Shown in pieces: positions 17,441 through 52,699 of a DNA stretch of 64,000 bases. The stretch spans positions 248,001 to 312,000 of the forward strand of contig NZ_JAFLWW010000003.1 in assembly GCF_018555685.1 (NCBI RefSeq), read 5' to 3'. A model generated the notes under the pieces. That model saw only the letters and a program-made list of their open reading frames with translations. It did not search any database and was not told the DNA's origin. Source of the stretch: Aminobacter anthyllidis. Its GTDB lineage: Bacteria > Pseudomonadota > Alphaproteobacteria > Rhizobiales > Rhizobiaceae. Both the position numbers and the translations under genes were made by a program. How positions within the stretch are numbered: the stretch's first letter is position 1; each line of letters begins with the position of its first letter.

Positions 17441-17605
17441 CTAACGCAGCGGGCCGATCTTGCCTTTCGATGGCGCGGCCAGCGCCACCATCTGGCCCGG
17501 CTTGAGCGATAAGTTGGCGTCGTTGAGGATCGTCAGCTTGCGCGAAACCTGCTCATAGTGGCGCTCGACCTTCTTGAGCTCGATAACATGCTCGATGCCC
17601 ATCAT
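17441..17605 (-). pseudogene. truncated lolD copy
   Basis: The first 46 residues match the intact LolD at 19293-19979 with five substitutions (starting [19 protein letters not shown]), then the match stops just before the Walker A motif: the intact protein reads APSGAGKST, this copy APSKGKIGPLR and a stop. With no Walker A, signature or Walker B motif it cannot be an ATPase. It overlaps the stop of lolC copy 1 by 4 bp as the intact pair does, showing that it came from duplication of the proS-lolC-lolD operon. Confidence 0.9.
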
Positions 17606-18888
17606 TCGTACCTCAGCGCCTCGACAGGATCGAGCGCTGCCGCCCGCCATGCCGGAAACAGCGTCGCCAAAAACGACAGCACCAGTGCCATCAGCACCAC
17701 CGAGACGGTCTCGCCGACGTCCATCTTCGCCGGCAGCTGGGACAGGAAATAGAGTTCGGGGTTGAACAGCACCGTGCCCGACAGCCACGAGAAGAACTGC
17801 CTGATGCGCTCGACATTGAGGCAGATGACCACGCCAAGCAGAACGCCGGCGAGCGTTCCGGTCATGCCGATGGCCGCCCCCGTCATCAGGAAGATGCGCA
17901 TCACAGCGCCTCGCGTCGCCCCCATCGTGCGCAGGATCGCGATGTCATGGCCCTTGTCCTGCACCAGCATGATCAGGCCGGAGATGATGTTGAGCGCGGC
18001 CACCAGAACGATCAGCGTCAGGATCATGAACATGACGTTGCGCTGGACCTGCAGCGCCGAGAAGAAGGTCTGGTTGCGCTGGCGCCAGTCGGTCAGGAAG
18101 ATCGGCCGCTGCGCCGCCTCCTCGACCTTGGTCTTCAGCGCGTCGACATCGTCGGGATTGTCGACATAGATCTCGATCGAGCCGACCTTGCCTTCCGAAT
18201 TGAAATAGAGCTGCGACTCAGCGAGCGGCATGAAGACGATCGAGCTGTCGTATTCCGACATGCCGACCTCGAAGATACCGGTGACCGGATAGGCCTTTGC
18301 CCGCGGCGTTGTCCCCATCGGGGTGACGTCGCCGTCGGGCGAAATCAGCTTGATCGAATCGCCCAGCACCAGGCCCATGTTTTCTGCCATGCGCTTGCCG
18401 ATGACGACGCCCTCGCCGGTATCGAACCCGACGATGGAGCCTTGCTTGATGTTGTTGGCGACCAGCGTCACCTTGCCGAGGTCGCTGCCTCTGATGCCGC
18501 GCACCAGCGCGCCGGCGCCCGCGCCGACATTGCCCTGGGCCAGCACCTGGCCTTCGACCAGCGGGATCGCATATTTGACACCCGAGACACCGTTGATGCG
18601 GTCGGCAACCGCGGCATAGTCCTCAAGCGGCGTGTCGGTCGCGATCACGACAAGATGGCCGTTGATGCCGAGGATGCGTGACAGCAGCTCCGCGCGGAAA
18701 CCGTTCAACACCGCCATCACCACGATCAGCGTCGCGACACCCAGCATGATGCCGAGGAAGGAGATCGAGGCGATCACCGAGATCATCGTTTCGTTGCGGC
18801 GCGAGCGCAGATAGCGCCACGCCACCATGCGCTCGAACACCGAGAACGGCCCTGCGCCTGCCGGTTTCGCCGCCACCGCTTGGCTCAT
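17602..18888 (-). CDS. lolC: LolC/E-family lipoprotein-releasing permease, copy 1
   Basis: A 428-residue permease with one membrane segment near the N terminus ([20 protein letters not shown]), a large periplasmic domain and three C-terminal membrane segments in an FtsX domain, ending PVEALRYE. LolC/E with LolD extract mature lipoproteins from the inner membrane. The frame is intact and differs from copy 2 at 14 residues, mostly conservative (for example SRRNETMIS versus SKRKETVIS). Its own lolD partner is truncated, so to work it would need LolD from the neighbouring copy. Its start overlaps the stop of the proS remnant by 4 bp (ATGA). Whether it is still needed is unclear. Confidence 0.9.
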   Translation of the reverse strand: MSQAVAAKPAGAGPFSVFERMVAWRYLRSRRNETMISVIASISFLGIMLGVATLIVVMAVLNGFRAELLSRILGINGHLVVIATDTPLEDYAAVADRINGVSGVKYAIPLVEGQVLAQGNVGAGAGALVRGIRGSDLGKVTLVANNIKQGSIVGFDTGEGVVIGKRMAENMGLVLGDSIKLISPDGDVTPMGTTPRAKAYPVTGIFEVGMSEYDSSIVFMPLAESQLYFNSEGKVGSIEIYVDNPDDVDALKTKVEEAAQRPIFLTDWRQRNQTFFSALQVQRNVMFMILTLIVLVAALNIISGLIMLVQDKGHDIAILRTMGATRGAVMRIFLMTGAAIGMTGTLAGVLLGVVICLNVERIRQFFSWLSGTVLFNPELYFLSQLPAKMDVGETVSVVLMALVLSFLATLFPAWRAAALDPVEALRYE

Positions 18889-19292: not shown

Positions 19293-19979
19293 CTACAGGG
19301 GCACGATCCTGCCTTCGGCCAGCGTGACGCGGCGGTCCATGCGCGCCGCCAGCTCGTGGTTGTGGGTGGCGATCAGCGCCGCCAGTCCCGATTGCCGAAC
19401 GAGCGCCGAAAGCGCATCGAAGACATAGCTTGCCGTCACCGGGTCGAGATTTCCGGTCGGCTCGTCAGCCAGCAGCACCAGAGGCGCGTTGGCCACCGCG
19501 CGCGCGATCGCCACGCGCTGCTGTTCGCCGCCGGAAAGCTCGGACGGCCGATGCTGGGCGCGCTTGCCGATCTTCATGTAGTCGAGCAGCTGTGCCGCCC
19601 GCTCGCTCGCCTGCTTGGGGCTCAGGCCCTTCACCAGCTGCGGCATCATCACATTCTCCAGCGCGGAGAATTCGGGCAGCAGGTGATGAAACTGGTAGAC
19701 GAAGCCGACGTCGTTGCGGCGGATCGCAGTGCGCTCGTCATCCGACAGCCGCCCGCAGGCACGTCCGTTCAGGAAGACATCGCCAGCATCGGGGCGTTCG
19801 AGCAGGCCGGCGGTGTGCAGCAGCGTCGACTTGCCTGCGCCCGATGGCGCGACAAGCGCCACCATCTCGCCTGCCTTCAGCGAAAAGTTGGCGTCGTTGA
19901 GGATCGTCAGCTTGCGCGATCCCTGCTCATAGTGGCGCTCGACCTTCTTGAGCTCGATAACATGCTCGATGCCCATCAT
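19293..19979 (-). CDS. lolD: lipoprotein-releasing system ATP-binding protein
   Basis: A 228-residue ABC ATPase. Walker A is APSGAGKST at about residues 44-52, the signature [14 protein letters not shown] at about 146-159, Walker [12 protein letters not shown] at about 169-179 and the H-loop in ATHNHELA. Start MMGIEHV overlaps the lolC stop by 4 bp. It powers lipoprotein release from the inner membrane. It is the only intact lolD in the window and could serve both lolC copies. Confidence 0.93.
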
Positions 19980-21262
19980 TCATACCTCAGCGCTTCGACA
20001 GGATCGAGCGCTGCCGCCCGCCATGCCGGAAACAGCGTCGCCAAAAACGACAGCACCAGTGCCATCAGCACCACCGAAACGGTTTCACTGACGTCCATCT
20101 TCGCCGGCAGCTGGGACAGGAAATAGAGTTCGGGGTTGAACAGCACCGTGCCCGACAGCCACGAGAAGAACTGCCTGATGCGCTCGACATTGAGGCAGAT
20201 CACGACACCGAGCAGCACACCCGCAATGGTGCCGGTCATGCCGATGGCCGCCCCCGTCATCAGGAAGATGCGCATGACAGCGCCACGCGTCGCCCCCATC
20301 GTGCGCAGGATCGCGATGTCATGACCCTTGTCCTTCACCAGCATGATCAGGCCGGAGATGATGTTGAGTGCGGCCACCAGCACGATCAGCGTCAGGATCA
20401 TGAACATGACGTTGCGCTCGACCTGCAGCGCCGAGAAGAAGGTCTGGTTGCGCTGGCGCCAGTCGGTCAGGAAGATCGGCCGCTGCGCCGCCTCCTCGAC
20501 CTTGGTCTTCAGCGCGTCGACATCGTCGGGATTGTCGACATAGATCTCGATCGAGCCGACCTTGCCTTCCGAATTGAAATAGAGCTGCGCTTCGTTGAGC
20601 GGCATGAAGACGATCGAGCTGTCATATTCCGACATGCCGACCTCGAAGATACCGGTGACCGGATAGGCCTTTGCCCGCGGCGTCGTGCCCATCGGGGTCA
20701 CGTCGCCGTCGGGCGAAATCAGCCTGATCGAATCGCCCAGCACCAGGCCCATGTTTTCGGCCATGCGCTTGCCGATGACGACGCCCTCGCCGGTATCGAA
20801 CCCGACGATGGAGCCTTGCTTGATGTTGTTGGCGACCAGCGTCACCTTGCCGAGGTCGCTGCCTCTGATGCCGCGTACCAGCGCGCCGGCACCCGCCCCG
20901 ACATTGCCCTGGGCCAGCACCTGGCCTTCGACCAGCGGGATCGCATATTTGACGCCCGAGACACCGTTGATGCGGTCGGCAACGGCGGCATAGTCCTCAA
21001 GCGGCGTATCGGTCGCCGTCACGACAAGATGGCCGTTGACGCCGAGGATTCGGGTCAGGAGCTCGGCGCGAAAGCCGTTCATGACAGCCATCACCACGAT
21101 CAGCGTGGCAACGCCCAGCATGATGCCGAGGAAAGAGATCGAAGCGATGACGGAAATCACCGTCTCCTTGCGCTTCGAACGCAGGTAGCGCCACGCCACC
21201 ATGCGCTCGAACACCGAGAACGGCCCTGCGCCCGCCGGTTTCGCCGCCACCGCTTGGCTCAT
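19976..21262 (-). CDS. lolC: LolC/E-family lipoprotein-releasing permease, copy 2 (parental)
   Basis: A 428-residue permease with the same layout as copy 1: N-terminal membrane segment, periplasmic domain, three C-terminal segments and the FtsX domain. It lies between an intact proS and an intact lolD with ATGA overlaps at both ends, the usual rhizobial order, so it is taken as the parental copy. Alphaproteobacteria often have one LolC/E protein acting as a homodimer, which fits the absence of a separate lolE. The frame is open to 21385, but this upstream part lies over proS; the Met at 21262 is the start. Confidence 0.93.
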
Positions 21263-43862: not shown

Positions 43863-44303
43863 TTGGAACTCGACGACAATCTCTCTGTCGAAATTTTGGA
43901 CGCATCCAGCGATAGCGCCGACGCGCGCCTCGCCGCGGAGGTGACAATTCTCGTCTGCTCGTCCTGCCGCGACGAGACCGGATCGGACGCCCCCCCCCGC
44001 GCAGGCGCCAAACTCGCCGAATCTGCGCGTCTCGCCGCGGCCAGCGAAGGCATCACTGTCCGCAGCGTCGAATGCCTCGGCAACTGCAAGCGCCGCCTGA
44101 GCGCTGCGATCCTGCGCGACGGCTCGTGGAGCTACGTCTTCGGCGATCTCAATATTGCCTCCGGCGACGATCTCGTCACCGGCGCGAAGCTTTTCGCCAC
44201 CTCGACCGACGGCCTGATCCCCTGGCGTGGCCGTCCCGACAGTCTCAAGCGCGGCCTCGTCGCGCGCATCCCACCACTTGCTCTCATCAAGGAAGACAAA
44301 TGA
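43863..44303 (+). CDS. DUF1636 family protein
   Basis: A 146-residue protein of the DUF1636 family, often found in cobalamin clusters. Two Cys pairs suggest a thioredoxin-fold ferredoxin or metal site: LVCSSCRDE and ECLGNCKRRL. The start is a TTG at 43863, supported by AAGGAG nine bases upstream and by the riboswitch platform; GTG further on (before TILVC) is a less likely alternative. The stop overlaps the cobW start (ATGA). Role unknown; a redox or metal-handling role in cobalt insertion is inference. Confidence 0.85.
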   Translation: MELDDNLSVEILDASSDSADARLAAEVTILVCSSCRDETGSDAPPRAGAKLAESARLAAASEGITVRSVECLGNCKRRLSAAILRDGSWSYVFGDLNIASGDDLVTGAKLFATSTDGLIPWRGRPDSLKRGLVARIPPLALIKEDK

Positions 44304-45337
44304 CCGCCTCCGTCGAACGCGTTCCCTGCACCGTCGTCACCGGGTTTCTCGGCGCCGGCAAGACCACCTTGCTGCGCAACATCCTCGAAAACTCCAAGGG
44401 CAAGCGCCTCGCCATCATCGTCAACGAGTTCGGCGATGTCGGCATTGACGGCGAGATCCTCAAGGGCTGTGGCGTCGAAGCCTGTCCCGAAGAAAACATC
44501 GTCGAATTGGCCAATGGCTGCATCTGCTGCACCGTTGCCGACGACTTCGTGCCGGCCCTGGACAAGATCCTGTCGCTCACGCCGAAGGTCGACCACATCC
44601 TGATCGAAACCTCGGGCCTGGCGCTGCCCAAGCCGCTGGTTCAGGCCTTCCAGTGGCCGAGCGTGAAAAGCCGCGTCACCGTCGACGGCGTCATTGCGGT
44701 GGTCGATGGTCCAGCGCTGGCCGCAGGCAAGGTCGCGTCCGACATGCAAGCGCTCGCCGCCCAGCGGCTGGCCGATGATTCGCTCGACCATGACGATCCG
44801 GTCGAAGAGGTGTTCGAGGATCAGGTCGCCTGTGCCGACCTCATCATCCTGTCCAAGAGCGACCTGCTCGACGAAGCCGGTCACGCCCGCGCCACCGCCA
44901 TCGTGCGAGAGCACCTGGCACGCGCGGTCAAGATCGTGCCGTCGGCGCACGGCAAGGTCGACCCGTCGGTGCTGCTCGGCCTCGGCCTCGCCGTCGAGGA
45001 CGACATCGAAAACCGCAAGACCCACCACGACGGCGCTTTCGACCACGAGCACGACGATTTCGACACCTTCGTCATCGAGATCCCCTCGATCACGAGCCCT
45101 GACGAACTGGCCAAGCGCGTCGCCACCGCCGCCGAGGAAGAAAACGTGCTGCGCGTGAAGGGTTTCGTCGACGTCGGCGGCAAGCCGATGCGCCTGCTCG
45201 TCCAGGCCGTCGGCCCGCGCGTCAACCACTATTACGACCGCGCCTGGACGCCCCAGGACGACCGCCGCTCGCGCCTCGTCGTCATCGGCCTCAAGGGCCT
45301 CGACCGCCCGGCCATCGAGCGCATCCTGGTCGGCTGA
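44300..45337 (+). CDS. cobW: CobW family GTPase
   Basis: A 345-residue G3E GTPase. The P-loop GFLGAGKTT lies at about residues 15-23, the metal motif NGCICCTV at about 72-79, and SKSDL at about 187. A His/Asp-rich stretch near residues 240-255 (HHDGAFDHEHDDFD) could bind metal. CobW is thought to deliver Co2+ to the CobNST chelatase. It overlaps the DUF1636 gene and precedes cobN by 13 bp. Confidence 0.94.
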   Translation: MTASVERVPCTVVTGFLGAGKTTLLRNILENSKGKRLAIIVNEFGDVGIDGEILKGCGVEACPEENIVELANGCICCTVADDFVPALDKILSLTPKVDHILIETSGLALPKPLVQAFQWPSVKSRVTVDGVIAVVDGPALAAGKVASDMQALAAQRLADDSLDHDDPVEEVFEDQVACADLIILSKSDLLDEAGHARATAIVREHLARAVKIVPSAHGKVDPSVLLGLGLAVEDDIENRKTHHDGAFDHEHDDFDTFVIEIPSITSPDELAKRVATAAEEENVLRVKGFVDVGGKPMRLLVQAVGPRVNHYYDRAWTPQDDRRSRLVVIGLKGLDRPAIERILVG

Positions 45338-45350
45338 ACCGGACACCGGG

Positions 45351-48300
45351 ATGCACATCCTCACCACCACATCCGCCTCGCTCGACGACCTGATCGAGCC
45401 GGTCGACCTCGGGCAGAAGCCTGCGGATGTGGTGGCGCTGTCCTTCACCGACAGCGACCTCGCCGGCCTCGCCAATGCCTGGAAGGCCGATGCTGCCAAC
45501 CTGCCCTCGATGCGGCTCGCCAACCTGCGCGACCTCCGGCACCCGATGTCGGTCGATCTTTGGATCGACAGGGTCGCCGCCCACGCCAGGGTCATCCTCG
45601 TCCGCATCCTCGGCGGCCACGATTGGTGGCGCTATGGCTGCGATCGGCTCGCGTCGCTGGCTCGCGAAAAAGGCATCGCGCTGGCGCTGTTGCCGGGCGA
45701 AAGCCACGATGAGGATTTGCGGCTGATCGAAGCCTCGACGCTGCCGCGCGCCGAACTCGATGCGCTGCTCGGCTATTTCCGCGAGGGCGGCCCCGAGAAT
45801 ATGAAGGCGCTGGTGGCGCGGCTGGCCGGACTGGCGGGGGCCAAAAGCACAACCGTCGCGCCTGTTACTGTGCCGAAGGCGGGATTCTATGACCCGGCAC
45901 GGGGCGTGATGACAGCCCCCTTCTCCCCGTTCACGGGGAGAAGGTCCCGGCAGGGGGATGAGGGGCAGGAGCCCACTCTTGATCCCCTCGCGCAGCCTCT
46001 CGAACGCCCCTTCGGGGCACCTTCTCCCCGTGAACGGGGAGAAGGAAGTGTCATCCCCATCCTCTTCTACCGGTCGATGCTGCTCGCTGCCGATGTCGCC
46101 CCCATCGACGCGCTGGTCGAGGCACTGCGCGCACAAGGCCTCCACCCTGCCCCGATCTTCGTCTCAAGCCTGAAAGACAAGGACTCCCTCGCCTTCGTCG
46201 AGACGGCGCTGGCACAACTAGACCCCGCTGCTATCGTAACGGCGACCGCCTTTGCCGCCGGCGCCGAACCGGGCACCGAAACCTTGTTCGACCGCGCCGG
46301 CGTGCCGGTGTTCCAGGTCATCGTCGCCACCACCCGCCGCGAAGCATGGGAAGGCAGCCCGCGTGGCCTGGCGCCCGCCGACCTTGCCATGCATGTGGTG
46401 ATGCCTGAGCTCGACGGTCGCATCCTCGCCGGCGCCATTTCCTTCAAGGCGGAGAGCGACGTCGACCCGGCCCTCGGCTTCCGAGCCTTCGCCAACCGGC
46501 CCGAGCCCGACCGCGTCGAGCAGGTCGCCCGCCGCATCGCCGCCCATCTCAGGCTGCGCGAGACGCCGCCCGAAAAGCGCAAGCTGGTGATCCTGCTCCC
46601 CGACTACCCCAGTGCCCCCGGCCGCACCGGTTATGCCGTCGGCCTCGACGTGCCATCAAGCGTGCTCGCCATGCTTCACGACCTGAAGGACGCTGGCTAC
46701 GAGGTTGAATCGATTCCCGAATCGCCACGTGAATTGCTCGAGCTGATCGAGACAGGCGGGCATGGGCTGGCGCTTGAGGACTACGTGGCGATGGCTGCGG
46801 ACTTGCCGGGGGAAGCCAGGGATGCGGTCGAGGCTGCCTGGGGTGGACCTGCGGAAGAAGCTGAATTCAGTAGTCGGCGCTCGACGTTGCCCCCCTCTGT
46901 CCTGCCGGACATCTCCCCCACAAGGGGGGAGATCATGCCTTCATTGCTGACTTCGCCTTTCGCCGACGTTGCAGGAAGTGCGACGTCGCCGAAGCTGCCA
47001 ATCTCCCCCCTTGTGGGGGAGATGTCCGGCAGGACAGAGGGGGGCAACGTCGAGCACGAGTCTTCATCTCCTGCAGGCACCTTCCCTTTCCGCGCCGCAA
47101 CCTTCGGCAACATCACCGTCGCCCTTGCCCCCGATCGCGGCCGCTCGGCCGATCGCCGCGCCGACTATCACGACCCGACGCTGCCGCCGCGCCACACGCT
47201 GCTTGCGTTCGGGCTTTGGCTGCAGAAATCCCTCGGCATCCACGCCATCGTCCATGTCGGCGCCCATGGCACGCTCGAATGGCTGCCCGGCAAGGCGGTG
47301 GCACTGAGTTCGACCTGCTTCCCGGAGATCGTCACCGGCTCGCTGCCGGTGGTCTATCCCTTCATCGTCTCCAATCCAGGCGAGGCCGCCCAGGCCAAGC
47401 GTCGCATCGCAGCGATCACGCTTGGCCACCTGCCGCCGCCGCTCGCTGCTGCCGGCCTGGACGAGCACCAGCAGAAGCTCGAGCGCCTGGTTGACGAATA
47501 TGCCCAGGCCGACGGCCTCGACCGCCGCCGCCGCGACCGCCTGGCCAAGCTGATCGTCGAGACGGCTGCCCAGACCGGCCTGGCGAGCGAAGCCGGCGTT
47601 GCCAACACCGACGCCCCCGATGAAGCGCTGCGCCGCATCGACGCCTGGCTCTGCGACCTCAAGGATTTCGCCATCAAGGACGGCCTGCATGTCTATGGCC
47701 GCATCGAAGCCGATGAGCCTGACGCAGCCCGCCGCGCCAGCGCCATCAGCGAGCGGAAAAACCTGATCGCCGCGCTCGACGGCCGTCACGTCAAGGCCGG
47801 CCCTTCGGGCGCGCCGGCGCGTGGCCGCACCGATGTCCTGCCTACCGGGCGCAACCTGTTCACCTCAGATCCGCGCACCATGCCGACGCCGACGGCCTTC
47901 GACCTAGGCAAGGCAGCCAGCGACGAGATCATGCGCAGCTACCTGCAAGGCCACGGCGAATGGCCGCGCGCGCTGGTCATCGACCTTTGGGGAAGTGCTT
48001 CGCTGCGCACCGGCGGCGAGGAGATCGCCCAAGGGCTTGCGCTGATGGGCTGCCGGCCGCAATGGGACGCCGCCACCGGCCGCGTCACCGGCATCGAGGT
48101 GCTGCCGCCGGCGGCGCTCGGCCGCCCGCGTGTCGATGTCACCTGGCGCATATCGGGCCTGTTTCGCGACATGTTCCCGACCCAGATCGCGCTGATCGAC
48201 GCCGCCGCACGCGCCGTCGCCACCCGCGACGAGGACGATTCGGAGAACCCGCTCGCCGCCAGCACCCGCGCCTCGGGCAAGGTCGAGCCGCGCATCTTCG

Positions 48301-49007
48301 GCTCGTCGCCGGGTACCTATGGCGCGGGCCTTGAAGACCTTCTTTCCAGCGGCGACTGGCAGGCGCGCGAGGAACTCGGCCGCGCTTATCTTGACGCCGC
48401 CTCGCACGCCTATGGCGGCAGCGATGGCGAAGGAATTTCCGCGCCCGGCGCCTTTGCCGATCGCATCGCCGACGCCGACCTTCTGGTCCACACCGGCGAC
48501 GATCCCGGCCGCGACATCCTCGAGGGCTCCGCCGACGTCGCCTTCATCGGCGGCTTCACCGCAGCACTCGCGGCACTGGGCAGGAATGCCGACGTCATCG
48601 TGCTCGACACGTCGGACCCGCATAAGCCACGTCCACGCTCGGTCACCGAAGCCGTCGGCCGCGTCGTCCGGGCGCGCGCCACCAACGCCCGCTTCATCGC
48701 CGGCCAGATGCGCCATGGTCCGCGCGGCGCCTCGGAATTCGCCGAAACCGTCGACCGGCTGATCGGCTTCGCCGAGACCACCAACGCCATTCCGGGTGCG
48801 CTCATCGAGGCCGTGCACGATGCCTATGTCGGCAATGACGACGTGCGCGCCTTCATGCTGCGCGAAAACCCGGCGGCAGCGAAATTCATCGCCGAACGCT
48901 TCGCGACCGCCCGCCGGCGCGGCCTCTGGCATCCCTTGCGCAACTCCATCGACGACGACCTCGCCGCCCTCATCGCCGAGGCACAGGCGCGCGAGGTTGC
49001 GGCATGA
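45351..49007 (+). CDS. cobN: cobaltochelatase subunit CobN, with two inserted palindromic elements
   Basis: A 1218-residue large chelatase subunit that binds hydrogenobyrinic acid a,c-diamide and inserts cobalt with CobS/CobT(chelatase). Conserved parts: PIFVSSLKDKDSL, HVGAHGTLEWLPGKAVALS (His/Glu metal-site region), YPFIVSNPGEAAQAKRR and FGSSPGTYGAGLEDL. Residues about 190-232 and 510-568 are not CobN-like; each is the translation of a palindromic repeat (45919-46045 and 46879-47055). Both fall in what are variable loops in the Pseudomonas protein as I remember it. The frame stays open through both. The stop overlaps cobG (ATGA). Confidence 0.94.
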   Translation: MHILTTTSASLDDLIEPVDLGQKPADVVALSFTDSDLAGLANAWKADAANLPSMRLANLRDLRHPMSVDLWIDRVAAHARVILVRILGGHDWWRYGCDRLASLAREKGIALALLPGESHDEDLRLIEASTLPRAELDALLGYFREGGPENMKALVARLAGLAGAKSTTVAPVTVPKAGFYDPARGVMTAPFSPFTGRRSRQGDEGQEPTLDPLAQPLERPFGAPSPRERGEGSVIPILFYRSMLLAADVAPIDALVEALRAQGLHPAPIFVSSLKDKDSLAFVETALAQLDPAAIVTATAFAAGAEPGTETLFDRAGVPVFQVIVATTRREAWEGSPRGLAPADLAMHVVMPELDGRILAGAISFKAESDVDPALGFRAFANRPEPDRVEQVARRIAAHLRLRETPPEKRKLVILLPDYPSAPGRTGYAVGLDVPSSVLAMLHDLKDAGYEVESIPESPRELLELIETGGHGLALEDYVAMAADLPGEARDAVEAAWGGPAEEAEFSSRRSTLPPSVLPDISPTRGEIMPSLLTSPFADVAGSATSPKLPISPLVGEMSGRTEGGNVEHESSSPAGTFPFRAATFGNITVALAPDRGRSADRRADYHDPTLPPRHTLLAFGLWLQKSLGIHAIVHVGAHGTLEWLPGKAVALSSTCFPEIVTGSLPVVYPFIVSNPGEAAQAKRRIAAITLGHLPPPLAAAGLDEHQQKLERLVDEYAQADGLDRRRRDRLAKLIVETAAQTGLASEAGVANTDAPDEALRRIDAWLCDLKDFAIKDGLHVYGRIEADEPDAARRASAISERKNLIAALDGRHVKAGPSGAPARGRTDVLPTGRNLFTSDPRTMPTPTAFDLGKAASDEIMRSYLQGHGEWPRALVIDLWGSASLRTGGEEIAQGLALMGCRPQWDAATGRVTGIEVLPPAALGRPRVDVTWRISGLFRDMFPTQIALIDAAARAVATRDEDDSENPLAASTRASGKVEPRIFGSSPGTYGAGLEDLLSSGDWQAREELGRAYLDAASHAYGGSDGEGISAPGAFADRIADADLLVHTGDDPGRDILEGSADVAFIGGFTAALAALGRNADVIVLDTSDPHKPRPRSVTEAVGRVVRARATNARFIAGQMRHGPRGASEFAETVDRLIGFAETTNAIPGALIEAVHDAYVGNDDVRAFMLRENPAAAKFIAERFATARRRGLWHPLRNSIDDDLAALIAEAQAREVAA
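45919..46045. repeat. palindromic element A inside cobN
   Basis: The 27-bp arm at 45919-45945 (CCTTCTCCCCG, a TTCA turn, CGGGGAGAAGGT) recurs inverted at 46019-46045. Each arm is itself a palindrome. Between them are the tract CCGGCAGGGGGATGAGGGGC and another small palindrome (GCCCCTTCGGGGC). The element is translated in frame as part of CobN (for example FSPFTGRR and APSPRERGEG). A related unit occurs at 53450-53687. Confidence 0.9.
46879..47055. repeat. palindromic element B inside cobN (55-bp inverted arms)
   Basis: The arms 46879-46933 and 47001-47055 are perfect inverted complements over 55 bp, enclosing 67 bp. The arm includes CCCCCTCTGTCCTGCCGG and CATCTCCCCC. It is translated without a stop; the left arm gives PPSVLPDISPTRGEI, the right ISPLVGEMSGRTEGG. 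The central 67 bp are homologous, in opposite orientation, to the centre of element C in cobG. Confidence 0.95.
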
Positions 49008-50554
49008 CCGGCTTCTCCCGCCGCGGCGCCTGCCCGGCACTGTCGGCACCGATGCAGACGGGCGACGGCATGCTCGTGCGGCTCAACCCGGTTGCTGGAG
49101 AAATCACGCCCAAAACCTTGATCGGACTCTGCGAATCCGCAGCTGGACATGGCAACGGCATCGTCGAGGTCACCGCGCGCGGCAGCATCCAGATCAGGGG
49201 CCTGACAGCGGAAAGCGCTTGCTTGCTGGCCGGGGAAGTCGACGCGCTCGGTATCGCAGTGCGAACTGGCGTACCCGTCGACACGAGCCCGCTCGCCGGC
49301 ATCGACCCGACTGAGATTGCCGACCCTGCACCGCTCGCCGCAGCCATCCGCGCCGGCATCGAAGTTGCCGGCCTCGCATCGCGGCTTGGGCCGAAGGTCT
49401 CGGTCGTCGTCGATGGTCGCGGGCGGATCGGGCTGGGTTCGATCATGGGCGATATCAGGCTGGTGGCGTTCAGTGTCTCGCGCTGGCGTTTGTCGGTTGG
49501 TGGCGACGAGTCGGCGGCAAGGTTTGTCGGCGAGTTCGAGACGGATGAGGCGTGTGCAGCGACGCTGGGCATTGTTCACGCTGTCGCCGCGCTGGGTCGC
49601 GGCGGCCGAGGTCGCGATCTTGATCTGGAGGCAGTGTCCGCCGCTATCGAAGGGTCAGAGAGGTCGCGATCCTTCGCACCCCCCTCTGTCCTGCCGGACA
49701 TCTCCCCCCCAAGGGGGGAGATTGGCAGCTTGGCCATCTCCGCTTGTCTCGCGACATTAGCGATGGGCGAAGGCACCGATGAAGTCGTGATCTCCCCCCT
49801 TGCGGGGGAGATGTCCGGCAGGACAGAGGGGGGTGCGAAGGATCGCGATTTGCCCGCAGCGTCTTTCACTGCCCCTGCCCAAGCACCTGACTCATATTCT
49901 GAACCAACCGCGCCAACCGATTCATCGCCCATCGGAATCCTCCCCCTCACAGGCTCCCGAATCGCTCTCGGCATAGCCCTTCCCTTCGGCAGCATCGACG
50001 CCTCAACGCTCATCCAGTTCTGCCACGACGCAGCAACCGCCGGTGCCACCGGCATTCGCCCGGCTCCCGGCCGAACCCTTCTCGTCATGGGGCTCGACCC
50101 CGCCTCCGCCGACACCCTGGCCGCCAACGCCAAGTCCCTCGGTCTCGTCACCTCGCCTGCCGATCCTCGCATCCGCATCGCGGCCTGCCCCGGCGCGCCG
50201 GCTTGCGCTTCGGGCATGATCGCCGCGCGGGACGTCGCCACCGACATTGCGACAGGCCTCGGCGAAAGCCTCGACCCGACGCTGACGCTCCACGTCTCCG
50301 GCTGCGCCAAGGGCTGCGCCCATCCCGGCCCGGCGACGCTGACCATCGTCGGTGACGAAAAAGGCGCGGCATTTGTCGTCGGCGGAACGGCGACGGGCCT
50401 TCCGGCCGCCTACACCGCAGGATATGAAGCCGCGCGCGGCATGGGCCGCCTCACGAAATTGCTCGCCCAGGAGCGCAAGCCGGACGAGAATGCCGCCGCT
50501 TGCCTCGCAAGGTTGGGCGCAAAGCGTCTCGCGCAAGCTCTGGCACAGGAATGA
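49004..50554 (+). CDS. cobG: precorrin-3B synthase, with an inserted palindromic element
   Basis: A 516-residue nitrite/sulfite-reductase-like enzyme with siroheme-type [4Fe-4S] ligands in AACPGAPACASGM and HVSGCAKGCAHPG. It hydroxylates precorrin-3A with O2 and forms the lactone that permits ring contraction, marking the oxygen-dependent route. N-terminal half-domain: MQTGDGMLVRLNP and ARGSIQIRGL. Residues about 221-282 are the translation of element C (49664-49848); without them the length is about 454, near the 459 of the Pseudomonas enzyme as I recall it. Confidence 0.93.
   Translation: MTGFSRRGACPALSAPMQTGDGMLVRLNPVAGEITPKTLIGLCESAAGHGNGIVEVTARGSIQIRGLTAESACLLAGEVDALGIAVRTGVPVDTSPLAGIDPTEIADPAPLAAAIRAGIEVAGLASRLGPKVSVVVDGRGRIGLGSIMGDIRLVAFSVSRWRLSVGGDESAARFVGEFETDEACAATLGIVHAVAALGRGGRGRDLDLEAVSAAIEGSERSRSFAPPSVLPDISPPRGEIGSLAISACLATLAMGEGTDEVVISPLAGEMSGRTEGGAKDRDLPAASFTAPAQAPDSYSEPTAPTDSSPIGILPLTGSRIALGIALPFGSIDASTLIQFCHDAATAGATGIRPAPGRTLLVMGLDPASADTLAANAKSLGLVTSPADPRIRIAACPGAPACASGMIAARDVATDIATGLGESLDPTLTLHVSGCAKGCAHPGPATLTIVGDEKGAAFVVGGTATGLPAAYTAGYEAARGMGRLTKLLAQERKPDENAAACLARLGAKRLAQALAQE
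49664..49848. repeat. palindromic element C inside cobG (59-bp inverted arms)
   Basis: The arms 49664-49722 and 49790-49848 are inverted complements with one mismatch, enclosing 67 bp. Arms share the CCCCCTCTGTCCTGCCGG and CATCTCCCCC core with element B, but the outermost bases differ (CGCGATCCTTCGCA). Translated in frame: PPSVLPDISPPRGEI on the left and ISPLAGEMSGRTEGG on the right, the same peptides as B. The centre runs opposite to that of B. Confidence 0.95.
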
Positions 50555-50556
50555 AC

Positions 50557-51189
50557 ATGGCCGCCTACGACTACATCCATGATGGCACGGCCATCTACGA
50601 GCGCTCCTTCGCCATCATCCGCTCGGAGGCCGACCTCACGCGCTTCTCCGAGGCCGAAGCCGACGTCGCCGTGCGCATGATCCATGCCTGCGGCCTCGTC
50701 GAAGCGGCCGAACACTTCGTCTTCTCCGAAGGATTCGTCTCTGCCGCGCGCGGTGCGCTGCAGGCCGGCGCGCCGATCTTCTGTGACGCCGAGATGGTCG
50801 CGCGCGGCGTCACCCGCGCCCGCCTGCCAGCCGACAACGAAGTGATCTGTACGTTGCGCGACCCGCGCACGTCGGAAATCGCCAAGAAAATCGGCAACAC
50901 CCGCTCGGCGGCCGCGATCGACCTGTGGGTGGATAGGTTGGCCGGCTCGGTCGTCGCCATCGGCAATGCGCCGACCGCCCTGTTTTACCTGCTCGAAAAG
51001 CTGCGCGACGGCGCGCCCAAGCCTGCGGCCATCATCGGCATGCCGGTCGGCTTCGTCGGCGCTGCCGAATCCAAGGACGCGCTGGCCGAGAATTCCTATG
51101 GCGTGCCCTATGCCATCGTGCGCGGCCGCCTCGGCGGCAGCGCCATGACGGCGGCCGCCCTCAATTCGCTGGCGAGGCCGGGCGTATGA
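50557..51189 (+). CDS. cobH: precorrin-8X methylmutase
   Basis: A 210-residue enzyme that moves the C-11 methyl group to C-12, giving hydrogenobyrinic acid. The catalytic His is in MIHACGLVEAAE (about residue 40); IGNAPTALFYLLE and GMPVGFVGA are family marks. Two ATGs, 50551 and 50557, are in the overlap with cobG; the second has AGGA six bases upstream and gives 210 residues, the family length. The stop overlaps cobI. Confidence 0.94.
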   Translation: MAAYDYIHDGTAIYERSFAIIRSEADLTRFSEAEADVAVRMIHACGLVEAAEHFVFSEGFVSAARGALQAGAPIFCDAEMVARGVTRARLPADNEVICTLRDPRTSEIAKKIGNTRSAAAIDLWVDRLAGSVVAIGNAPTALFYLLEKLRDGAPKPAAIIGMPVGFVGAAESKDALAENSYGVPYAIVRGRLGGSAMTAAALNSLARPGV

Positions 51190-51938
51190 GCACTGCTGCA
51201 GCACAGGGCCGCCTCATCGGCGTCGGCACTGGCCCGGGCGACCCCGAGCTGCTGACCGTCAAGGCGGTGCGCGCGCTGGCCGAGGCCGACGTGATCGCGC
51301 ATTTCTCCAAGCGTGGCGCCAACGGCAACGCCCGCACCATCACAGACGCGCATTTCCGCGACGGCGTGATCGAGCTGCCGCTCGTCTATCCGGTCACGAT
51401 AGAGATCGACAAGGATCACGACGACTACCGTTCGGCCATCACAGGCTTCTACGAAGAGTCGGCGCAAGCGGTGGCCGCCCATCTCGACCAGGGCCGCACC
51501 GTCGCCATCCTGTCTGAAGGCGACCCGCTGTTCTACGGCTCCTACATGCACCTGCATGTGCGCCTGTCGCATCTCTACCCGACCGAGGTCATCCCCGGCG
51601 TCACAGCCATGTCCGGCTGCTGGTCGCAGACGGGCGTACCGATCGTCCAGGGCGACGACGTGCTGTCGGTGCTGCCCGGCACCATGAGCGAGTTCGAGCT
51701 CACGCGCCGCCTCGCCGACACCGACGCCGCCGTCATCATGAAGGTCGGGCGCAACCTGCCGAAAATCCGCAAGGCGCTTGAAGTGACCGGCAAGCTCGGC
51801 CGCGCCATCTATGTCGAGCGCGGCACCATGCCGACGACACAGCATATGCGGCTCGTCGACAAGGCAGACGACAAGGCGCCCTATTTCGCCATCGTGCTGG
51901 TGCCCGGCTGGGCCGGCAAGCCGGGAGCCGACAAGTGA
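51186..51938 (+). CDS. cobI: precorrin-2 C20-methyltransferase
   Basis: A 250-residue SAM-dependent tetrapyrrole methyltransferase. N-terminal GVGTGPGDPELLTVKAVRAL, ILSEGDPLFYGSYMHL and VIPGVTAMSGCWS are the family motifs, the first two given in part. It makes precorrin-3A. Coupled by 4-bp overlaps to cobH and cobJ. Confidence 0.94.
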   Translation: MSTAAAQGRLIGVGTGPGDPELLTVKAVRALAEADVIAHFSKRGANGNARTITDAHFRDGVIELPLVYPVTIEIDKDHDDYRSAITGFYEESAQAVAAHLDQGRTVAILSEGDPLFYGSYMHLHVRLSHLYPTEVIPGVTAMSGCWSQTGVPIVQGDDVLSVLPGTMSEFELTRRLADTDAAVIMKVGRNLPKIRKALEVTGKLGRAIYVERGTMPTTQHMRLVDKADDKAPYFAIVLVPGWAGKPGADK

Positions 51939-52699
51939 GCGGCCGCCTCGTCGTCATCGGCCTTGGCCCCGGCAATCCGGACCAGATCACGCCGGAAGCA
52001 AGCCGTGCAGTCGCCGAGGCGAGCCACTTCTACGGCTACAAGCCCTATCTCGACCGGCTGGAACTGCGCCCCGACCAGACCCGCGTCGCCTCCGACAACC
52101 GCGAGGAAATCTCGCGCTCCAACGCGGCACTCGAAATGGCGGCAAGCGGCCACAATGTTGCCGTCGTCTCCGGCGGCGATCCCGGCGTCTTCGCCATGGC
52201 CGCAGCCGTCTGCGAGGCCATCGAGGCCGGCCCCAGGGAATGGCGCGACATCGATCTCGCGGTCGTGCCCGGCGTCACTGCCATGCTGGCCGTCGCCGCC
52301 CGCACCGGCGCCCCGCTTGGCCACGACTTCTGCGCCATCAACCTGTCGGACAATCTCAAGCCCTGGGATCTGGTCGAGCGCCGTCTCGTCGCCGTCGCCC
52401 AGGCAGGCTTCGTCATCTCGCTCTACAATCCGATCAGCAAGGCCCGCCCCTGGCAACTCGGTAGCGCGCTTGAGACGCTGCGCGCCCATTTGCCCGCATC
52501 GACGCCCGTCATCTTCGGCCGCGCCGCCGGCCGGCCCGATGAGCGCATCGAGATATTCACGCTCGCCGAGGCCGACGCGCAAAAGGCGGACATGGCCACC
52601 TGTGTCGTCATCGGCTCGCCGGAAACGCGCCTGATCGAGCGCGACGGCAAGCGCCCGCTGGTCTACACGCCGCGCTTTTCAGCCGGAGCGGCGAAATGA
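51935..52699 (+). CDS. cobJ: precorrin-3B C17-methyltransferase
   Basis: A 254-residue methyltransferase that methylates C-17 and contracts the ring to precorrin-4. Motifs: GLGPGNPDQITPEA, YGYKPYLDRL, SGGDPGVFAMA and SLYNPISKARPWQL. It starts with GTG 51935 inside the cobI stop. Its last 37 bp overlap the 3' end of the convergent cobK. Confidence 0.94.
   Translation: MSGRLVVIGLGPGNPDQITPEASRAVAEASHFYGYKPYLDRLELRPDQTRVASDNREEISRSNAALEMAASGHNVAVVSGGDPGVFAMAAAVCEAIEAGPREWRDIDLAVVPGVTAMLAVAARTGAPLGHDFCAINLSDNLKPWDLVERRLVAVAQAGFVISLYNPISKARPWQLGSALETLRAHLPASTPVIFGRAAGRPDERIEIFTLAEADAQKADMATCVVIGSPETRLIERDGKRPLVYTPRFSAGAAK

What the first reader, a model, noticed from the sequence alone, without database searches (positions are those of the whole stretch)
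46879..49848. Palindromic elements inserted in frame in cobN and cobG, encoding the same peptides in either orientation
Elements B (46879-47055) and C (49664-49848) have 55-59 bp inverted arms around 67-bp centres. Both are read through without a stop, in the same frame, giving PPSVLPDISP-RGEI on the left and ISPL-GEMSGRTEGG on the right. Their centres align only when one is flipped, so the two were inserted in opposite orientations, yet the arms give the same peptides because the element is a palindrome. This is the logic of protein-coding palindromic elements described in Rickettsia. It happens here in two enzymes of one pathway.
Basis: partly seen in the sequence, partly recalled or inferred. 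Interest (0 to 1): 0.85.

Follow-up and report, generated by a model that had tools for sequence, protein, structure and literature searches.

The report
Flipping palindromes inside vitamin B12 genes
Two vitamin-B12 enzymes of a soil bacterium carry a repeated palindromic DNA element inserted without breaking the protein, and comparison with related species shows that the middle of the element has turned round in place again and again, so one gene position encodes either of two different peptides while the reading frame stays intact.

Summary
B (46879-47055) and C (49664-49848) are palindromes with 55- and 59-bp arms and 67-bp centres that align only when one is flipped (45/67 against 17/67), read in frame in cobN and cobG of an Aminobacter.

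'Two insertions in opposite orientations' needs changing. In 85 distinct genomes, mostly Mesorhizobium, the same positions carry a full element in 50 of 85 (B) and 57 of 81 (C), with centres 27 F/22 R/1 unclear and 30 F/25 R/2 unclear. Orientation does not follow the tree. M. muleiense and M. prunaredense have the same centre, 67/67, inverted. Flips also occur at non-cob copies (9 flipped, 13 same, 15 unclear of 37 pairs) and between hutH and hutG on complete Rhizobium plasmids (6 against 9 of 15).

So these are in-frame, invertible palindromic elements. Centre length keeps one class modulo 3 at each site (123 of 123). Centres change equally at all codon positions, so the peptide looks neutral; arms are conserved as DNA, not as protein.

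It works like Rickettsia palindromic elements plus flip-flop small inversions. Membership in a named family, flipping within a culture, and any function are unshown.

The parts
45351..49007 (+). cobN, 1218 codons, carrying two in-frame inserts (A and B)
   Evidence: open frame; PF02514 in 3 stretches; aligns to solved CobN 9uk9 with gaps at the two inserts
45919..46045 (+). element A: palindrome of another repeat family (39-nt arms, 87% complementary, 49 nt between), in frame, CobN residues 190-232
   Evidence: I4; 77 listed matches in the own genome; lies between chain residues 185 and 201 of solved CobN
46879..46933 (+). element B, left arm (55 nt)
46934..47000 (+). element B, 67-nt centre, orientation R (invertible part)
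47001..47055 (+). element B, right arm (55 nt, perfect complement of the left)
49004..50554 (+). cobG, 516 codons, carrying in-frame insert C
   Evidence: open frame; PF03460
49664..49722 (+). element C, left arm (59 nt)
49723..49789 (+). element C, 67-nt centre, orientation F (invertible part)
49790..49848 (+). element C, right arm (59 nt, one mismatch to the left)

Best explanation
B and C are copies of a short, multicopy, non-coding palindromic repeat of Rhizobiaceae (GTDB sense) that came to lie in variable loops of CobN and CobG. Shown: arms and centre are read in frame; at each site the length class modulo 3 is kept while length itself varies; the centre peptide drifts as if neutral; the arms are kept alike as DNA; and the centre inverts in place between species, which leaves length and arms unchanged. 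Inferred: the elements entered these loops before or early in the spread of Mesorhizobium and Aminobacter and were mostly inherited; inversion and the likeness of the two arms both come from the hairpin (short template switching, or recombination between the arms), not from a dedicated recombinase; the insert is tolerated rather than useful.
For: Full element at the same position in 50 of 85 (B) and 57 of 81 (C) distinct loci. Orientation B 27 F/22 R, C 30 F/25 R; least number of changes 16 on 49 tips (label shuffles mean 16.3) and 17 on 55 (18.5). L114 against L120 at B: 67/67 identical after flipping, next 1.26 kb of cobN 5.6% different. WSM1271 CobG centre: best of 30 other paired copies in its genome 0.65, best orthologue 0.93 and in the opposite orientation. 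Complete genomes show both states: B R in L157, F in L162; C F in L147, R in L157 and L162. Non-cob copies flip too: 9 flipped, 13 same, 15 unclear of 37 orthologous pairs; hutH-hutG copy 6 against 9 of 15 complete plasmid records. Centre length class: A 16/16, B 50/50, C 57/57 in one class, 68 other copies 43:9:16. Codon-position differences 1/2/3: centre B .25/.20/.30 (34 pairs), C .24/.21/.16 (17 pairs); arms .05/.05/.05 and .06/.05/.07; CobN flank .04/.02/.22. Arms alike within a copy: 0.948 and 0.941 against about 0.91 between species; variable tetranucleotide equal in both arms 19/42 and 30/51 against 7.9 and 7.7 by shuffling. In solved CobN 9uk9 insert A falls between chain residues 185 and 201, B between 487 and 495.
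Against: The window's own centres are no closer to orthologues (0.73 B, 0.63 C) than to other copies in the genome (0.71, 0.67; 20 copies), so descent in place is not shown for this very genome; nearest neighbours cross sites in 7 of 48 (B) and 11 of 34 (C), and B and C of one genome reach 0.93 identity once, so some exchange between copies is possible. Flips are not more often stop-free than codon composition predicts: 4 of 50 (expected 2.3) at B and 11 of 57 (expected 5.6) at C would gain a stop, so there is no sign of selection for both orientations. One CobG (L157, a complete genome) is out of frame in the element. Most cob loci are draft assemblies. No clean pre-insertion site, target duplication or transposase was found.
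Confidence: 0.8

Rival explanations
1. No inversion: orientation differs because the element was inserted independently in different lineages, or was replaced by other copies of the genome through recombination in the conserved arms.
For: Several families occupy the same loops: at A 19 loci of this family, 5 and 12 of two others, 8 other long, 38 short, of 82; at B 9 of 35 loci without the full element carry another palindrome-like motif. Nearest neighbours sometimes cross sites, and the window's own centres are no closer to orthologues than to other copies.
Against: Exact 67/67 inverted match L114/L120; WSM1271 CobG centre 0.93 to an inverted orthologue against 0.65 to the best of 30 other copies; identity declines with flank distance alike for same- and opposite-orientation pairs; same behaviour at hutH-hutG.
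Confidence: 0.12
2. Orientation differences are assembly errors: inverted arms of 44-59 bp let short-read assemblers place the centre either way.
For: Most cob loci are draft contigs; arms are longer than small k-mers (recalled).
Against: Both orientations occur among records titled complete at cob (L147, L157, L162) and at hutH-hutG (15 complete plasmid records, near-identical strains always agreeing: N731/N1314, N621/N561, Mim1/NXC12).
Confidence: 0.04
3. The elements are useful phase switches: the centre flips within a population and the two peptides change CobN or CobG.
For: Arms are conserved at DNA level beyond neutral expectation; most flips stay open (46 of 50 at B, 46 of 57 at C); at A, where 10 of 16 flips would give a stop, 9 of those 10 are F and 1 unclear, whereas the same species are 11 F/9 R at B and C (Fisher p 0.027, species not independent).
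Against: Equal change at all codon positions suggests the centre peptide is not under selection; open flips are no more frequent than composition predicts; full elements are lost to in-frame remnants in 11 (B) and 13 (C) loci; non-cob copies flip too; near-identical strains share orientation.
Confidence: 0.06

Closest known systems
Rickettsia palindromic elements (RPE)
   Same: Multicopy palindromes of about 150 bp that lie in frame in unrelated metabolic genes and are read through (passages of review PMC10969869).
   Different: Here most copies in the own genome are outside genes; the centre inverts in place; the arms are kept alike, whereas RPEs are reported to lose repeat identity over time (passage of PMC6649704). 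Sequence kinship with RPEs was not tested.
RIME and other intergenic repeats of rhizobia
   Same: Dozens of short structured repeats per rhizobial genome, in the same bacterial group (passages of PMC2573895).
   Different: Described as intergenic; the original RIME paper is not held, so the sequence could not be compared. This is the family name I think most likely, by recall only.
Small flip-flop inversions of chloroplast DNA
   Same: Short stretches between short inverted repeats that form stem-loops and appear in either orientation (passage of PMC12928735 on its reference 30).
   Different: Reported spans 5-50 bp with 11-24 bp arms; here 67 bp with 44-59 bp arms, in bacterial genes, in frame, and in a repeat with dozens of copies.
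Intragenic invertons / gene-altering programmed inversions
   Same: Invertible DNA inside a coding sequence giving another protein form (seen only as a sentence and reference-list entries in PMC11892184; the two cited papers are not held).
   Different: Invertons there are described as enzyme-mediated; here inversion is seen only between species and strains, no recombinase was looked for, and both orientations mostly keep the full-length frame.
Coding palindromes of Nematomorpha mitochondria
   Same: Long inverted repeats inside coding sequence whose arms evolve together; template switching is proposed there (abstract and passages of PMC6649704).
   Different: There the arms encode conserved native residues; here the element is an insert with neutral peptide. 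The word inversion does not occur in that text.
Enterobacterial RU repeats inside genes
   Same: Small MITE-like repeats with open frames fused into genes (abstract of PMC2759123).
   Different: Other bacteria; the abstract mentions no inversion of a centre.

Membership tests
Rickettsia palindromic elements | multicopy palindrome of about 100-150 bp | tested here: met
   177 and 185 bp with 55/59-bp arms; 53 arm matches in the own genome
Rickettsia palindromic elements | in-frame insertion in several unrelated genes | tested here: met
   cobN, cobG, a Hydantoinase_A gene (half-arms only) and an XdhC gene (partial match) in the own genome, 4 of 37 loci
Rickettsia palindromic elements | copies mainly inside coding genes | tested here: not met
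   4 of 37 loci in the own genome; 1 doubtful of 40 non-cob loci in M. ciceri WSM1271
Rickettsia palindromic elements | sequence kinship with RPE families | not tested
   no RPE sequence was fetched
RIME of rhizobia | sequence match to RIME1/RIME2 | not testable with these tools
   original paper not held; no Rfam family matched
RIME of rhizobia | structured repeat confined to Rhizobiaceae and kin | tested here: met
   exact arm pattern in 4 of 121 sampled genomes of the order, all in the window's family; 180 plasmid records, top genera Rhizobium and Sinorhizobium
Invertons | inverted-repeat-bounded DNA found in both orientations at one locus | tested here: met
Invertons | both orientations within one population | not testable with these tools
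   no reads held; one genome per species at cob
Invertons | dedicated site-specific recombinase | not tested
   no search for a recombinase was made
Autonomous or MITE-type transposable element | target-site duplication and empty site | tested here: inconclusive
   only arm-bearing loci were fetched for the non-cob comparison, so empty sites there could not appear; cob loci without trace exist (15 at B, 11 at C) but are too diverged to define a junction

The most novel reading that the evidence does not exclude
A dispersed mobile-type palindrome acts as an in-frame intragenic inverton without a recombinase: its hairpin makes the centre flip often enough for clones of one culture to differ, so that CobN and CobG exist in two forms, and the arms are conserved because flipping depends on them.
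Probability: 0.12. Interest if true: 0.85.

Novelty: new variant of a known kind. Interest (0 to 1): 0.7.

Why it matters
Palindromic repeats in genes are known, and short inversions at inverted repeats are known; here one repeat family does both, inside two enzymes of one pathway, across dozens of species. That gives a natural series to measure how fast hairpin loops invert, to test whether inversion and arm likeness share one mechanism, and to see what a protein loop tolerates: the site keeps only frame and openness while the peptide is free. It also warns that alignments and trees of CobN and CobG contain non-homologous segments produced by inversion, and that the centres at one site are not alignable without flipping.

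Tried and rejected
Outer arms as inverted target duplications: B and C have different outer arms (GCTCGACGTTG and TCGCGATCCTTCGCA), which first looked like copied target sequence; but the same two kinds recur at other copies of the genome and in other species at other sites, so they are element subtypes. Mixed outer arms are common and were not explained.

Selection for two-way open frames: against shuffled bases the flipped centres look strongly open (4 against 25.5 expected with a stop at B, 11 against 29.4 at C), but against shuffled codons there is no excess (2.3 and 5.6 expected); rejected.

Counts of copies inside genes rest on a codon-usage score trained on 15 window frames; five further loci have an open agreeing frame that starts only 17-83 nt before the element and were not counted as inside genes.

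Rfam: no match in window 44000-52000 or in three other loci. Literature: ten searches, of which only the listed top rows were seen; none of the listed titles or abstracts describes in-frame palindromes with inverting centres in rhizobia.
Full report
What is there. A third palindrome in cobN, 45919-46045, belongs to another repeat family with 77 listed matches in the genome. CobN matches PF02514 and CobG PF03460.

A repeat family. An arm pattern with one mismatch allowed occurs 53 times in the own genome against 0 for the reversed pattern, and 4 to 57 times in eight other Aminobacter genomes and 73 to 197 times in four Mesorhizobium genomes (12 genomes). Exact arms were found in 4 of 121 sampled genomes of the order, all in the window's family. 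Copies inside genes are the exception: in 4 of 37 loci of the own genome an open, coding-like frame runs more than 500 nt on both sides of the element (cobN, cobG, a Hydantoinase_A gene with half-arms, an XdhC gene with a partial match), and in M. ciceri WSM1271 1 doubtful of 40 non-cob loci.

Same sites in relatives. I took 10 genus genomes and the best 80 of 224 relatives found in named genomes, 90 loci or 85 distinct genomes after five duplicates. All three linkers were cut out between conserved flanks. Full elements: A 16 of 82, B 50 of 85, C 57 of 81. Of 35 and 24 loci without a full element at B and C, 11 and 13 keep arm remnants, 9 and 0 another palindrome-like motif, 15 and 11 no trace (simple patterns). 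At A three families and other long inserts share the loop. Lengths are multiples of 3 in 82/82, 85/85 and 80/81; the exception is CobG of L157, a complete genome, out of frame in the element. Centre lengths vary (64 to 118) but always in one class modulo 3 at a site, 16/16, 50/50 and 57/57, whereas 68 other copies spread 43:9:16 (centre cut slightly differently there).

The centre inverts. Scored against one reference centre, B is 27 F, 22 R, 1 unclear; C 30 F, 25 R, 2 unclear. On a FastTree tree of 1.26 kb of cobN after site B, orientation needs at least 16 changes among 49 tips (label shuffles mean 16.3; 536 of 1000 do as well) and 17 among 55 (18.5; 314 of 1000), so it carries no phylogenetic signal. 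B and C orientations in one genome are independent (FF 11, RF 10, FR 10, RR 8). Identity of centres falls with flank distance in the same way for same-orientation pairs and for opposite pairs after flipping. L114 (M. prunaredense) and L120 (M. muleiense) have identical 67-nt centres in opposite orientation although the neighbouring cobN differs by 5.6%. For WSM1271 the CobG centre is 0.93 identical to an orthologue in the opposite orientation (L160) and at most 0.65 to 30 other paired copies of its genome, which speaks against replacement.

Not special to cob. Among four Aminobacter genomes 45 orthologous non-cob pairs were found: 9 flipped, 13 same, 15 unclear, 8 without a paired element in the second genome (only arm-bearing loci were fetched, so empty sites could not be seen). 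Between the listed hutH and hutG genes of 15 complete Rhizobium plasmid records the centre lies one way in 6 and the other in 9; WSM1689 and Vaf-108, 94% alike in the flanks, have centres 89% identical after flipping and 56% without; three near-identical pairs agree. The plasmid gene table is incomplete, so a small annotated feature over the element cannot be excluded.

What selection sees. In same-orientation pairs with flank distance up to 10% the centre differs equally at codon positions 1, 2, 3 (B .246/.203/.301, 34 pairs; C .235/.211/.156, 17 pairs), about the third-position rate of the CobN flank (.217.226), so the peptide looks free. The arms differ by .048/.048/.047 and .059/.051/.065, a quarter of that rate and without codon bias, so they are kept alike as DNA (pairs are not independent). 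Within a copy the arms agree more than between species (0.948 and 0.941 against about 0.91), and a variable tetranucleotide is equal in both arms in 19 of 42 and 30 of 51 copies against 7.9 and 7.7 by shuffling. No centre contains a stop as read (0 of 123). Flipping would bring one in 4 of 50 (B), 11 of 57 (C) and 10 of 16 (A). At B and C this is no better than codon-shuffled expectation (2.3, 5.6), so there is no sign of selection for both directions. At A, 9 of the 10 stop-prone copies are F and 1 unclear while the same species are 11 F/9 R at B and C (p 0.027, species not independent), as expected if a nonsense flip is weeded out.

Where it sits. In the alignment to solved CobN 9uk9, insert A falls between chain residues 185 and 201 and insert B between 487 and 495, that is, in short connections. 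No comparable alignment covers C.

Mechanism. The element folds into one long hairpin. Shown: inversion in place and likeness of the arms. Inferred: both follow from the hairpin, through short template switching at replication or recombination between the arms; template switching is the mechanism that the Nematomorpha paper offers for concerted arms (PMC6649704, passages), and flip-flop of chloroplast stem-loops is the nearest case of inversion (PMC12928735, passages). Inversion does not change length, so a frame once open in both directions survives; this is why cobN and cobG can keep an inverting element. Ongoing exchange with other copies could also keep the arms alike; it was not excluded.

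Against this reading. For the window's own genome the centres are no closer to orthologues (0.73, 0.63) than to other copies (0.71, 0.67), nearest neighbours cross between B and C in 7 of 48 and 11 of 34, and B and C of one genome are once 0.93 identical, so exchange between copies may also happen. Most cob loci are drafts. How the element moved, and whether it still moves, is not known.

Noticed in passing
L149 at B and C, L129 at C: A further repeat-like insert (peptide ..GGEEWSAQRTESQLLGFPSDERPERQRRAGSGRTEGG or similar) lies in frame inside the right arm of the element: in-frame inserts nested in an in-frame insert.
   Followed up: no
L136 site B: A short in-frame insertion (peptide LSLSNG) splits the left arm motif VLPDISP.
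   Followed up: no
L157 site C (Mesorhizobium sp. M1B.F.Ca.ET.045.04.1.1, complete genome): The CobG region is out of frame within the palindrome, with stops in the nominal frame; a length difference in a G run of an arm is the apparent cause.
   Followed up: partly
45919-46045 and site A of relatives: The same CobN loop carries at least three palindromic repeat families in different species, always in frame (82 of 82 loci).
   Followed up: partly
L172 (G000:C2) and L184 (G000:C5): Hydantoinase_A and XdhC genes of the own genome also carry partial elements in frame, between Pfam domains.
   Followed up: partly
17468-17767 and 19842-20141: A 300-bp direct repeat at 95% identity, 2.4 kb apart.
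   Followed up: no
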